Below are positions 48,781 through 52,313 of a DNA stretch of 64,000 bases, in pieces. The stretch is taken from the NCBI GenBank assembly GCA_938002965.1, contig CALKZY010000013.1, forward strand, positions 124,001 through 188,000, in the 5' to 3' direction. How positions within the stretch are numbered: position 1 is the first letter of the stretch; every line of letters begins with the position of its first letter. Both the position numbers and the translations under genes were made by a program. Source of the DNA: an uncultured Acidimicrobiales bacterium (lineage in GTDB: Bacteria; Actinomycetota; Acidimicrobiia; Acidimicrobiales; SZUA-35). The notes under the pieces were generated by a model that was given only the letters and a program-made list of their open reading frames with translations, was not told the DNA's origin and made no database searches.

Positions 48781-49269
48781 CTACTCCGAGACCGGACCCA
48801 GGAGCTGCTTGGCCGCGTTGCCGGCCCTGTTGTTGAGGTTGGCTTGTCCGCCAACCAAGATCAGCTCGGACAATTCGATCTCGGTAAACAGCTCTCGCAG
48901 TGACGCCACCAGGGTGGGGTCGAGGGCGTGGGTCTCGCCTGACATGGCGTCGGCCAGGGCCAGCGCACCCAACTCACGGTCATCGAACAGTTCGGCCCAC
49001 GTTTCGGGCTTGTCCAACGCGTCGATCTTTTCGTCCGACACTCCTCGTCGTCTCGCCGAGACGACATGGCCATCGAGTCAAGTGGGGCACTGGTTGATGA
49101 TCGACGTGCGGAGGAAGACCAGCTCTTTCATGGCCGGCGTTACTGCCGCGTCGTCGGACCAGATGGCCTTGCCGAACGTTGTATACGGGTCGGCTGCGTC
49201 TTCGACCTGGGCCAAGGTATAGGCCAAGGGTGCGCCGGAGAGTTTGTATCGAACCTTCATTGCTTTCAT
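48781..49269 (-). CDS. candidate selenoprotein, AhpD/carboxymuconolactone-decarboxylase-like (CxxU)
   Basis: Read as one gene of 162 residues with UGA (49078-49080) decoded as selenocysteine at position 64. Upstream: VTPAMKELVFLRTSIINQCPT. Downstream: LDGHVVSARRRGVSDEKIDA, then LDKPETWAELFDDRELGALA and a C-terminal helix pair. AhpD-family proteins have E/LR(T/A)SxxNxCxxCxxxH here. The UGA falls exactly on the second Cys and the His three residues later is conserved (C-P-T-U-L-D-G-H). A matching hairpin follows (separate entry). The frame is open for 98 codons after the UGA, with family-like sequence, to a TAG. It lies 10 nt behind a glutathionyl-hydroquinone-reductase-like gene, so both may form a thiol-redox operon. 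Alternatives are a nonsense mutation or a sequence error, which would not explain the hairpin and exact placement. SelA, SelB, SelC and SelD are not in the window. Confidence 0.8.
49047..49080 (-). promoter_or_regulatory. putative bacterial SECIS element with its UGA
   Basis: After the UGA (49080-49078) come 12 nt, then GTCGTCTC-GGC-GAGACGAC (49065-49047), a perfect 8-bp stem with a 3-nt loop that begins with G, 20 nt after the UGA. The general bacterial SECIS model asks for a 4-16 bp stem, a 3-14 nt loop with G in the first two positions and a UGA-to-loop spacing of about 16-37 nt. All are met. It would be the SelB-tRNA(Sec) landing site. Confidence 0.75.
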
Positions 49270-49279
49270 TATGGGCCGT

Positions 49280-50281
49280 TCAGGCCGCTATTGAGGCGCT
49301 GTGGTCTTCCTGCGGTAGCGGCGGACCAGGTGGCGTGCCGTCACCGAACGGGCGACCACCCAGCGACTCACGACCGTGATCAGTGAGCAGGCCACTCAAG
49401 TCCGGGCCGAGGGGGGTCACCTGTGAAGGGTTGATGGTGGTGTGAACCACGTAGTAGTGCTCCTTCACCTGACCGAAGTGAACCGTGTCGCCGAAACCGG
49501 GCGTCTGGTACAAGTCGCGCACGTAACCCCACAGAGCCGGCATCTCCGACAGCTTGTTTCGGTTGCACTTGAAGTGGCCGTGGTAGACGGCGTCGAAACG
49601 GATCAGCGTGGTGAACAGTCGAACGTCGGCTTCGGTGATGTGGTCACCGACCAGGTATCGCTGGTTCGTCAACCGTTCTTCCAACCAGTCGAGTCGGGAG
49701 AACAGGGTGCGGTAAGCATCCTCGTAGGCGGACTGTGACGAGGAAAACCCGGTGCGATACACACCGTTGTTAACGTCGTGGTACACCAGCTCAGCCACCT
49801 CGTCGATCTCGTCACGCAGTTGATCGGGATACAGATCGGGAGCGCCTGACCGGTGGTGGTCGGTCCACTGGGTCGAGAGGTCAATGGTGATCTGAGGAAA
49901 GTCGTTGGTGACCAGATGGCCCGACGGCACATCAACTATGGCTGGAACCGTTATCCCTTTGGGATACTCGGGGAAACGCTTGAGGAACGCATCCCGCAGC
50001 CGTTCGATTTTCAGTACCGGGTCAACACCCCCGGGGTCAAGGTCGAACTGCCAGCTCCGCCAGTCGTGCGTTGGCCCGGCAAAGGCCAATGAGATAGCGT
50101 CCTCCAATCCAAGAAGGCGGCGTACGATCGTCGTCCGATTGGCCCAGGGACATGCGGCCGCTGCCACCAATCGGTATCGGCCGGGCTCCACCGGCCATTG
50201 GGTGTCGGAGTCGTCGACAGAACGCATGATGCGATCGGTCACGTACTCAGTGTCCCGCTCAAAGGCGCCGGTGTTGCTCAC
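49280..50281 (-). CDS. glutathionyl-hydroquinone reductase-like (GST-fold) protein
   Basis: 333 residues of the YqjG/ECM4 type. The thioredoxin-like domain has the CPW motif in AAACPWANRTTIVR (Cys at about residue 44), GPTHDWRSWQFDLDPGGVDP and KGITVPAIVDV. The helical domain has GVYRTGFSSSQSAYEDAYRT, NQRYLVGDHITEADVRLF, LIRFDAVYHGHFKCN and TPGFGDTVHFGQVKEHYYVV. Members reduce glutathionyl-quinones. Actinobacteria mostly use mycothiol, so the true thiol partner here is probably different. It is first in an operon with the candidate selenoprotein, and divergent from the sulfatase remnant. Confidence 0.9.
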   Translation of the reverse strand: MSNTGAFERDTEYVTDRIMRSVDDSDTQWPVEPGRYRLVAAAACPWANRTTIVRRLLGLEDAISLAFAGPTHDWRSWQFDLDPGGVDPVLKIERLRDAFLKRFPEYPKGITVPAIVDVPSGHLVTNDFPQITIDLSTQWTDHHRSGAPDLYPDQLRDEIDEVAELVYHDVNNGVYRTGFSSSQSAYEDAYRTLFSRLDWLEERLTNQRYLVGDHITEADVRLFTTLIRFDAVYHGHFKCNRNKLSEMPALWGYVRDLYQTPGFGDTVHFGQVKEHYYVVHTTINPSQVTPLGPDLSGLLTDHGRESLGGRPFGDGTPPGPPLPQEDHSASIAA

Positions 50282-50403
50282 GAAGTCCTCCGTGCTTGTT
50301 GGTCCCCTCCAGTCAACCGCGACCCAAGGCCGATACTTCGCACCAATCCCACTTCACCCCAAGCCCACTTCGCTCCTGAACGCCAAGCGTTGCTACGTTT
50401 GAG

Positions 50404-52313
50404 CCGATGACTATGGGCAACCGAATAGGCAGGACCGTGGCCGAGTCGACTCCGCACTGGCCGAAGTCCGAGCCGCCGGATTCGGGCCTAGTGGGCCATT
50501 CGACGGCTGGCCGCTCGGCCGGGGCTTCGACCGGTTCTACGGCTTCCTCGACGCCGAAACCGATCAGTACTCTCCCGAACTGGTTAGGGATAACACTCAC
50601 ATCACTGCACCCGGAACATACGCGACCGGCTACCACCTCACGGAAGATCTCATTGACCAGGCCTTGGCTTTCGTCAAAGGTCATGAGGCGGCCACACCCG
50701 ATGTGCCGTGGTTCTTGATGGTGTCTCCCGGCGCCTGCCACGCCCCTCATCAAGCTCCCAAAGACCTCATCGACAAGTACGACCAACGGTTCACCAAGGG
50801 GTGGGATGCCACCCGTCGGCACCGACTCGATCGCCAACTAGAACTAGGCGTCGTGCCACCCAAGACCGGCCTACCGGCTCGCAACGACCGAGTGGAGGCA
50901 TGGGACAACCACACTGACGACGAACGTCGCCTGTTCACTCGTTTGCAGGCGGCCTATGCCGCCATGTTGGAACACACCGACACTCACCTGGGACGCCTTG
51001 TCGAGCACCTTGACACCTCGGGCCAGCTGGACAACACCATCGTCTTGGTGTTGTCAGACAACGGAGCCAGTCAAGAGGGCGGGCCGCTCGGTTTCGTGAA
51101 CGCCATGTCGGTTTACAACATGGTCCCGGAACCCATGGACGAGAAGGTGGCCCGCATCGACGACATAGGCGGCCCCGACACTCACTCCAACTTTCCGCTC
51201 GGATGGGCCATGACCGCAAATACTCCCCTCAAGCGGTACAAGCAGAACACGCATGGTGGCGGTGTCCGCGACCCTTTGGTCATCCACGCTCCGGGCATGG
51301 TCGACGATCCCGGCGGGCTCCGCCAACAGTTCTGTCATGTGGCCGACTTGGCACCGACAGTCCTGGATCTGCTGGGGATCGGGAAGGCGGCCGAGCCGGC
51401 AATGACCGGCGTCAGCTTTGCCGCCACGGTGGGCGACCCCGAAGCCGAACCAGCCAAGACCACTCAGTACTTTGAAATGTTCGGCCACCGGGGTATCTGG
51501 CACGACGGATGGAAGGCCGTTGCCTTCCATCAGCCAGGCACACCATGGGAGGACGACCAATGGGAGCTGTACCATCTCGACGCAGACTTCAGCGAACTCC
51601 ACAACCGTGCTGATTCCGAGCCGGAGCGACTGCAGGCGCTGAAAGAGCGTTGGTGGGCCGAGGCCGAAGCCAACAAAGTGTTGCCACTGGACGATCGCTT
51701 CGGTGAACGGTTCGCCGAGAACGCCGTCCGCCATACTGGCCGTCGCCGCACCTACACCTTTTGGGCCGGGATGGGCCATCTACCCTCAGACGTCGCCCCC
51801 GACCTGCGCAGCCGCAGTTACACCATCACCGCCGAGGTGGACATCCCGAGCGGCGGGGCGGATGGGGTTCTGATCGCCCACGGCGATGCCACCTGCGGCT
51901 ACTCGCTGTTTGTGCAAGACGGGTACCTGGTCCACGATTTGAACATCGGGGGCAACCATCAGATGGTGCGATCTGATCGCCCGGTTCCCACCGGCGGACC
52001 CTGCACCTTGGCCTTTCAGATGGCCCGATCCCCCGGCGAGGGGCCGTTTCCTCACGGCACCGGCACGCTTCTGATCGACGGCGAACCGACCGGGATTCTC
52101 GAGACCGACCGAATCTTCTGGTTGATGATCTCGTGGTCCGGCTTGGACGTCGGGTTCGATCGAGGCACCACTGTTTCAGACTACGACCGCACCGGTCGAC
52201 ACATCGGACCGTTCGCCTTCACCGGCACGCTGCACAAGGTGACCGTTGACCTTGAAAATGATCAGGACGTCGACAGCGATGCCTCGGCTGACCTCCAAGT
52301 CAGCCGAGACTAG
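50404..52313 (+). pseudogene. arylsulfatase missing its N-terminus and active site
   Basis: A frame open from 50404 to the TAG at 52311-52313 reads like the last three quarters of an arylsulfatase: GPFDGWPLGRGFDRFYGFLD (about 50491), VSPGACHAPHQAPKDLIDKY, VLVLSDNGASQEGGPLG, FPLGWAMTANTPLKRYKQNT, HGGGVRDPLVIHAPG and a C-terminal beta domain. The formylglycine motif CxPSR and the first metal-binding Asp residues, normally about 100 or more residues earlier, are absent. No ATG or GTG occurs in this frame before 50664, where a TTG could start a 549-residue fragment. The stretch upstream is intergenic. It is a 5'-truncated remnant, unlikely to be an active sulfatase. Confidence 0.8.

What the first reader, a model, noticed from the sequence alone, without database searches (positions are those of the whole stretch)
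48781..49269. Candidate selenoprotein: AhpD-like protein with Cys-x-x-Sec and a fitting SECIS hairpin
Two short minus-strand frames join through one in-frame UGA into a full-length AhpD/carboxymuconolactone-decarboxylase-like protein. The UGA replaces the second Cys of CxxC and is followed by the conserved His (C-P-T-U-L-D-G-H). An 8-bp perfect hairpin with a GGC loop lies at the spacing expected of a bacterial SECIS. Gene callers would report two unrelated fragments and lose the active site. I recall that AhpD-like selenoproteins have been described before, so the novelty lies in this lineage and in its pairing with a GST-type reductase.
Basis: partly seen in the sequence, partly recalled or inferred. 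Interest (0 to 1): 0.92.

Follow-up and report, generated by a model that had tools for sequence, protein, structure and literature searches.

The report
Selenocysteine AhpD-like protein in Acidimicrobiales
A small bacterial redox protein of the AhpD family carries selenocysteine, read from a UGA codon, in its active site, as do all the close full-length relatives found here; it is a new, well-supported member of an already known kind of selenoprotein.

Summary
On the minus strand, 49269-48781, two frames join through one in-frame TGA (49080-49078) into a 162-residue AhpD/CMD-domain protein with C61-P-T-U64-L-D-G-H68. A hairpin with a GGC loop follows and fits the published bacterial SECIS model. 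The genome encodes tRNA-Sec, SelA, SelB and SelD. TGA is kept in 30 of 30 aligned full-length members (45-74% identical to the window's) and in two more; no Cys form of this subfamily was found. The hairpin shows paired changes at four base pairs and its codons are nearly frozen, although its folding energy is ordinary. Protein constraint continues past the TGA. UGA is therefore almost certainly read as selenocysteine. The predicted fold is AhpD-like, and the Glu-Cys-Sec-His spacing equals the AhpD proton relay, so a selenol/thiol peroxidase or disulfide reductase is most likely; substrate and partner are unknown. Pairing with the GST-type protein is not conserved (a homologue near the gene in 1 of 29 other loci). 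AhpD-like CxxU selenoproteins have been known since 2005, so this is an apparently Sec-only subfamily of a known kind. Two more CMD-family frames of the same genome carry TGA at the second Cys of CxxC.

The parts
48781..49269 (-). AhpD/CMD-family selenoprotein gene, 162 codons plus TAG stop; a start at the second ATG (49260) is as likely, since that Met is nearly invariant in relatives
   Evidence: sequence, translation; Pfam CMD, TIGR00778; alignment; predicted AhpD fold
49078..49080 (-). in-frame TGA decoded as selenocysteine 64 (last position of C-P-T-U)
   Evidence: TGA in 30 of 30 aligned full-length members and in both further members found; tRNA-Sec, SelA, SelB, SelD in the genome
49043..49069 (-). 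SECIS hairpin: 9-bp stem (49066-49058 with 49054-49046), loop GGC (49057-49055), with an outer two-pair extension across an A/A mismatch
   Evidence: fold; alignment, covariation; model hits starting at the TGA of the window and of 29 of 29 full-length genome-contig loci and in 21 of 21 loci of the order search (the two sets overlap)
49066..49125 (-). predicted catalytic residues Glu49, Cys61, Sec64, His68 (spacing 12, 3, 4), as in the AhpD proton relay
   Evidence: E49, C61 and position 64 invariant, H68 nearly so; spacing compared with M. tuberculosis AhpD and PA0269 as given in PMC3141380; in the model E49 lies on helix 45-59 and positions 64 and 68 on helix 62-74
49280..50281 (-). upstream GST-fold protein (CPWA motif, 333 aa), 10 nt from the selenoprotein start; a neighbour in this genome, not part of a conserved system
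   Evidence: GST_N_2, GST_C_2; homologue in the fetched flank of 1 of 29 other loci

Best explanation
The gene encodes a selenoprotein. SelB, bound to the hairpin just after the UGA, delivers selenocysteyl-tRNA, and UGA 64 is read as Sec. The product is an all-helical AhpD-like protein in which Sec replaces the second Cys of CxxC. Glu49 and His68 activate the Cys61/Sec64 pair; Sec64 reduces a hydroperoxide or an oxidised partner, and Cys61 resolves it through a selenenyl sulfide that a cellular reductase opens again. Decoding as Sec rests on comparative evidence (my confidence of 0.96 is for this). The chemistry is inferred from fold and spacing identity with AhpD (about 0.6). Substrate and reductase are unknown.
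For: Machinery: tRNA-Sec 66.3 bits over cut-off 47 and called tRNA-SeC by ARAGORN; SelB 253.7 bits summed in one frame over cut-off 242.25; SelA 326.9 bits beside SelB; SelD 364.9 bits, itself with an in-frame TGA. Conservation of TGA: 30 of 30 members, and 22 of 22 matches in 21 of 397 genomes of the order (overlapping the same set, 2 new). The two patterns that fetched the 29 loci lie outside the TGA, so Cys forms were not excluded. SECIS: 4 of 11 pairs with changes on both sides, 17 cells, 0 of 500 shuffles; codon positions in the hairpin differ 0.004/0.080/0.199 against 0.291/0.219/0.555 downstream; the four limits of the bSECIS model in PMC13188914 are met (MFE -18.9). Protein constraint continues past the TGA. 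TGA still ends 11 of 28 of these same genes, so no code change. All 10 family genomes that carry the gene have SelA, as do 6 of 6 carrier genomes tested by locus, at least one of them already among the 10. Fold: AlphaFold2 model with mean pLDDT 92.2; best PDB matches are P. aeruginosa AhpD/PA0269 chains, probability 1.00, TM-score about 0.7 by query length.
Against: No protein-level evidence. Stem energy is not unusual. The machinery genes lie on other contigs of an assembly rated 91.46% complete and 6.12% contaminated. SelA is in 36 of 39 family genomes, so its co-occurrence discriminates little. His68 is Arg in the member from Thermomicrobiales. M. tuberculosis AhpD itself is a weak fold match (E 0.46, TM 0.52), and Bmp8 debrominase matches about as well by TM-score as the AhpDs. 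Peroxidase activity is untested.
Confidence: 0.96

Rival explanations
1. The TGA is a real stop or a sequencing or pseudogene lesion, and the downstream frame is a remnant or a separate gene starting at GTG 49041.
For: An ORF of 86 aa from GTG 49041 can be called mechanically. One relative (L066) is only a 3' remnant.
Against: The same TGA in 30 of 30 diverged members, similar protein constraint on both sides, CMD domain spanning the TGA, conserved hairpin with compensatory changes. A start at 49041 would lose the CxxU motif.
Confidence: 0.02
2. UGA is read as another amino acid (reassigned code or a suppressor) rather than as Sec.
For: Nothing direct; an open frame fits any sense reading.
Against: 11 of 28 of these genes end in TGA, the adjacent GST ORF ends in TGA, Sec machinery and SECIS are present, and CxxC is present in all 33 distant relatives read from the phylum and family searches (29 of the 37 phylum matches were fetched).
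Confidence: 0.01
3. The protein is a selenoprotein but not a peroxidase: a CMD-fold enzyme for another reduction, such as reductive dehalogenation (as titled for Bmp8 debrominase) or disulfide exchange with a dedicated partner.
For: The profile matches the chain titled Debrominase Bmp8 weakly (6ohi, E 0.0004), and the model matches it by fold (6ohj E 6.5e-4, 6ohi E 2.9e-3, TM 0.74-0.75). Position 63 is an invariant Thr, not the His or Tyr of characterised AhpDs. No neighbour family recurs in more than 5 of 30 neighbourhoods, so no partner is suggested.
Against: Glu-Cys-x-x-Sec-x3-His spacing is exactly that of AhpD, and the best solved matches by sequence and by fold are PA0269/AhpD chains, for which weak H2O2 reduction is reported (PMC3141380).
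Confidence: 0.3
4. The selenoprotein and the upstream GST-type protein form a functional pair.
For: In the window the two genes are on the same strand, 10 nt apart. The nearest relative, L040, also has a homologue upstream on the same strand.
Against: A homologue of the GST lies in the fetched flank of only 1 of 29 other loci (L040, 85.6% identical), 1.87 kb from the gene. 10 of the 29 have a flank under 4.8 kb, so a few could be missed.
Confidence: 0.07

Closest known systems
AhpD-like 1 (COG2128) and AhpD-like 2 (pfam02627) selenoproteins, and CMD domain-containing selenoprotein, from marine metagenomes (PMC1088965, PMC2398784)
   Same: CMD/AhpD domain with CxxU motif
   Different: AhpD-like 1 and 2 have many Cys homologues in the same survey (902 and 207 in the GOS table); none was found for this subfamily here.
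NCBIfam NF053654 YciW-related (seleno)protein
   Same: Best-scoring curated (seleno)protein model for the window protein; AhpD-type core
   Different: 39.7 bits against a cut-off of 310: not a member
NCBIfam NF041047 GSU3128 family and NF041238 AhpD_rel_CFYUT (seleno)proteins
   Same: AhpD core; weak matches by 30 and 21 of 30 members at E 0.01
   Different: Window protein 16.7 bits against 110 for NF041047 and no match at E 0.01 to NF041238
Pseudomonas aeruginosa PA0269/AhpD (2ijc, 2o4d, 7xw1) and M. tuberculosis AhpD
   Same: Active-site spacing Glu-12-Cys-3-Cys-4-His; PA0269 chains are the best fold matches
   Different: Sec in place of the second Cys; Thr at the His/Tyr relay position; by sequence only profile 44-148 aligns; M. 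tuberculosis AhpD is a weak fold match

Membership tests
Bacterial selenoprotein | in-frame UGA, conserved at a redox position in homologues | tested here: met
   30 of 30 aligned members TGA; CxxC in the 33 distant relatives read
Bacterial selenoprotein | SECIS: 3-9 nt apical loop, 4-16 bp upper stem, G in first two loop positions, 16-37 nt from UGA to loop, MFE at most -7.5 (limits as printed in PMC13188914) | tested here: met
   GGC loop, 9 bp, 20 nt, -18.9 kcal/mol; covariation
Bacterial selenoprotein | SelA, SelB, SelD and tRNA-Sec in the genome | tested here: met
Bacterial selenoprotein | selenium in the protein | not testable with these tools
   needs labelling or mass spectrometry
AhpD/CMD family (PF02627, TIGR00778) | score above curated cut-off | tested here: met
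   55.6 bits vs 23 and 44.4 vs 27.8, with C written for U
AhpD-like fold | structural match to solved AhpD-like proteins | tested here: met
   model pLDDT 92.2; 7xw1 and 2ijc, probability 1.00, TM 0.71-0.72 by query length, 33% identity
AhpD-type peroxidase | Glu, CxxC, His proton relay with spacing 12, 3, 4 | tested here: met
   E49, C61, U64, H68, with Sec for the second Cys; compared with PMC3141380 passages; relay position 63 is Thr, and His is Arg in L064
AhpD-type peroxidase | hydroperoxide reduction | not testable with these tools
   assay needed
Known NCBIfam AhpD (seleno)protein equivalogs (NF053654, NF041047) | score above curated cut-off | tested here: not met
   39.7 vs 310; 16.7 vs 110, window protein
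AhpD-like 2 selenoprotein of the GOS survey | sequence similarity to the published members | not tested
   sequences not held; only table rows seen

The most novel reading that the evidence does not exclude
This is an obligate selenocysteine subfamily of AhpD: it arose once, spread through several families of one order (mostly titled Acidimicrobiales) and reached a Thermomicrobiales lineage, and never reverted to Cys, although the distant AhpD relatives read here outside the own genome all have CxxC. That would imply a reaction that Cys cannot support in this scaffold, in environmental bacteria whose selenoproteomes I found hardly described.
Probability: 0.45. Interest if true: 0.55.

Novelty: new member of a known kind. 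Interest (0 to 1): 0.42.

Why it matters
A gene caller that treats TGA only as stop would split this gene and lose the active site; the comparative case here is strong enough to add a selenoprotein subfamily to annotation models. It shows a bacterial family that widely keeps the Sec pathway (SelA in 36 of 39 genomes), with three CMD-family frames carrying TGA at the catalytic position in one genome. A Sec-only AhpD subfamily would offer a clean test of what Sec gives that Cys does not.

Tried and rejected
Rejected: ordinary stop or pseudogene, code reassignment, and functional pairing with the GST (see rivals). Folding energy as evidence for the SECIS was tried three ways (dinucleotide shuffles; synonymous recoding of the window's stretch and of 29 relatives; 27 other 42-nt stretches of the gene, three of them with a lower z than the window's -1.63 or near it) and is not distinctive, so I do not use it as proof. 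A first scan of genome contigs with the single protein found nothing; the alignment scan then gave 30 loci. A model of this SECIS gave one strong hit in the own genome, this gene; three others have E above 2, one of them the opposite strand of the same hairpin, and the tool scored 150 of 5533 candidates. SelD and the two other TGA frames show differently built hairpins. The Rfam scan of the window gave nothing. The first structure polls found the job unfinished; it was collected. The second structural aligner was not available. L104 and L106 were left out of the tree because no CxxC was read in them. Genome searches in class, phylum and order were samples (395, 396, 397 genomes) with at most 9 candidates scored per genome, so a rare Cys form could be missed. 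Literature searches for Acidimicrobi- with selenocysteine or selenoprotein and for CPTU with selenoprotein (0 papers) listed no paper whose title or abstract start reports this subfamily; for those I saw listings only, and most subscription journals are not held.

Full report
What is there. On the minus strand a frame from ATG 49269 to TAG 48781 is interrupted once, by TGA at 49080-49078. Read through, it gives 162 residues, MKAMKVRYKLSGAPLAYTL...INQCPT-U-LDGHVVSARRRG...NLNNRAGNAAKQLLGPVSE. With C written for U, it matches Pfam CMD over residues 24-85, across the TGA (55.6 bits, cut-off 23), and TIGR00778 ahpD_dom (44.4, cut-off 27.8). Met 4 (ATG 49260) is nearly invariant in relatives, so 159 residues is also possible.

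Machinery. The same assembly holds tRNA-Sec (66.3 bits, cut-off 47; ARAGORN tRNA-SeC with anticodon tca), SelB (253.7 bits summed in one frame, cut-off 242.25), SelA immediately beside it (326.9 bits) and SelD (364.9 bits), the last with its own in-frame TGA in HGAG-U-ACK. SelA is found in 36 of 39 genomes of the family; the three without it gave no match to the gene, and all 10 that carry it have SelA. SelA was also found in 6 of 6 carrier genomes tested by locus, including the Thermomicrobiales one; at least one of the six (that of L040) is already among the 10.

Relatives. In the family, 14 of 39 genomes gave 16 matches at E 1e-8: 11 genes in 10 genomes with TGA, one 3' fragment, and four distant paralogues without stops. 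In the class, 4 of 395 genomes matched at E 1e-20, all with TGA. A scan of genome contigs with an alignment used two patterns away from the TGA and returned 30 loci from 69 pattern matches. Twenty-nine are full length and all 29 have TGA at the same codon; the thirtieth (L066) is a 3' remnant. Record titles name 21 of the 30 loci as Acidimicrobiales or Acidimicrobiaceae, 7 only as Actinomycetota or Actinomycetes, one as a bacterium and one (L064) as Thermomicrobiales. Window plus 29 make alignment A3: 45-74% identity to the window, TGA 30 of 30. In the order, 21 of 397 genomes gave 22 matches at E 1e-20, each with one TGA and none without. Of the 21 loci fetched there besides the window's, 18 are copies of loci already held, two are new, and one (L131) was not caught by my motif filter, though it has the SECIS model hit. 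In total there are at least 32 distinct full-length genes, none with Cys. These are samples with capped candidate lists, so a rare Cys form could be missed.

Distant relatives. A profile search of 396 genomes of the phylum matched 33 at E 1e-12; besides the window none of the 37 other matches holds a stop. The 29 loci fetched of these all have CxxC, as do the four distant family paralogues; of the 10 other CMD frames of the own genome, 6 have CxxC, 2 have CxxU and in 2 neither was read. On a tree of 71 rows (30 Sec members, 39 Cys rows, two own-genome Sec rows; the two without a motif left out) the 30 lie on one side of a branch with support 100/99, in 100% of 200 bootstrap trees. Several rows have long branches, and the nearest Cys group joins with weak support (83/67), so the point of origin is not resolved.

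SECIS. The hairpin (49069-49043) has a 9-bp stem starting 11 nt after the UGA and a GGC loop 20 nt after it. The model printed in PMC13188914 asks for a 3-9 nt loop, a 4-16 bp stem, G in the first two loop positions, 16-37 nt spacing and at most -7.5 kcal/mol (passages read); all are met (-18.9 kcal/mol for the 42 nt after the UGA). On 30 sequences 97.6% of cells pair, four of eleven pairs show changes on both sides (17 cells), and none of 500 shuffles reaches the covariation score. That control ignores relatedness; the slid controls give at most 8 such cells. On the first 13 sequences alone the signal was weaker (2 pairs, 4 cells, 7 of 500). Codon positions in the hairpin differ from the window at 0.004/0.080/0.199 (261 codons), against 0.295/0.170/0.520 upstream (1758) and 0.291/0.219/0.555 downstream (2383). 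Ser is TCG in 30 of 30, Ala GCG in 28 of 28, Arg+9 AGA or AGG in 28 of 28, though AGA makes up about 10% of Arg codons in these genes. Stability alone is ordinary. A covariance model of the element hits the TGA of the window and of all 29 full-length genome-contig loci, L064 weakly (22.2 bits, E 0.018), and hits all 21 loci of the order search. In the own genome its only strong hit is this gene.

Not a stop, not a new code. Third positions change 2.5 times as often as second positions after the TGA (3 times before it), so the downstream part is under protein constraint. The same genes end in TGA in 11 of 28 cases, so TGA keeps its stop meaning.

Mechanism. PMC3141380 (passages read) gives the AhpD proton relay as Glu118, Cys130, His132, Cys133, His137 in M. 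tuberculosis and Glu36, Cys48, Tyr50, Cys51, His55 in PA0269. Here Glu49, Cys61, Sec64 and His68 have the same spacing; position 63 is an invariant Thr. Glu49, Cys61 and position 64 are invariant in 30 of 30, and His68 is Arg in L064. The best solved sequence matches are PA0269 chains (2ijc E 5.5e-16; 2o4d E 7.1e-16). An AlphaFold2 model from the 30-row alignment, with C for U, has mean pLDDT 92.2 and pTM 0.87, is all helical, and puts Glu49 on helix 45-59 and positions 64 and 68 on the next helix, 62-74. Foldseek ranks P. aeruginosa AhpD/PA0269 first (7xw1 E 2.7e-5, TM 0.71 by query and 0.85 by target, 33% identity); M. tuberculosis AhpD is a weak match (E 0.46), and Bmp8 debrominase matches at TM 0.74-0.75. 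That Sec would be the attacking and Cys61 the resolving residue is inferred; my recollection that the second Cys is the more reactive one in AhpD comes from no call. Electron donor and substrate are open.

Neighbourhood. The GST-fold ORF (49280-50281) ends 10 nt before the gene. A homologue was found in the flank of one other locus of 29 (L040, 85.6% identity, 1.87 kb upstream on the same strand). No family of neighbours recurs in more than 5 of 30 neighbourhoods (flanks up to 5 kb, 10 of the 29 loci with one under 4.8 kb). The adjacency is local.

Other selenoproteins of this genome. Of 11 CMD matches in the genome three hold one TGA: this gene; L109, with C-M-W-U; and L111, with C-H-Y-U, which passes the TIGR01926 cut-off with C written at the TGA (131 vs 81.8 bits). 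In both the TGA takes the second Cys of CxxC. L111 resembles the known AhpD-like selenoproteins that PMC13188914 lists under TIGR01926.

Known or new. AhpD-like CxxU selenoproteins were reported in 2005 (27 sequences, PMC1088965, passages) and 2008 (AhpD-like 1, 299; AhpD-like 2, 70; PMC2398784, table rows). The window protein falls far below the cut-offs of NF053654 (39.7 vs 310) and NF041047 (16.7 vs 110). The searches listed no paper that names this subfamily in what I saw, but I could not compare with the published metagenome sequences. Verdict: real, new member of a known kind, with the unusual trait that no Cys form was found.

Noticed in passing
L109 (G000 contig 3, 64782-64988, -): Second CMD-family frame of the same genome with an in-frame TGA at the second Cys of CxxC (G-C-M-W-U-H-D-F); best NCBIfam model NF053654 at 107.4 bits, cut-off 310. 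A hairpin can fold after the TGA.
   Followed up: partly
L111 (G000 contig 30, 68019-68153, +): Third CMD-family frame with in-frame TGA (S-C-H-Y-U-I-V-H-H); TIGR01926 peroxidase-related, 131 bits over cut-off 81.8. A 7-bp hairpin can fold after the TGA.
   Followed up: partly
L018 (G000 contig 17, 47905-48840, +): SelD itself has an in-frame TGA in HGAG-U-ACK, with a strong hairpin just after it.
   Followed up: partly
window 50027-50115 (-): ARAGORN calls a tRNA-Ala inside the GST-type ORF; Rfam finds no tRNA in the window at gathering score. Probably a false call.
   Followed up: partly
window 50403-52313 (+): Sulfatase-like frame that seems to lack its N-terminal part (a stop closes the frame just upstream); named from its look, no family scan run. 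Homologous frames lie near the gene in L040, L042, L049 and L064.
   Followed up: no
L066 / L029 (1457-1618): A 3' remnant of the selenoprotein gene (residues 103-156) without the CxxU half: a decayed or rearranged copy in an assembly titled Acidimicrobiaceae.
   Followed up: partly
L064 (5001-5450): Thermomicrobiales member keeps TGA and a hairpin of diverged sequence, but has Arg in place of the conserved His (C-D-T-U-V-R-A-R); it sits on a long branch among the other members.
   Followed up: partly
L052 and L056 (one assembly, JAJRXF01): One assembly carries two diverged copies of the selenoprotein, both with TGA and hairpin.
   Followed up: no
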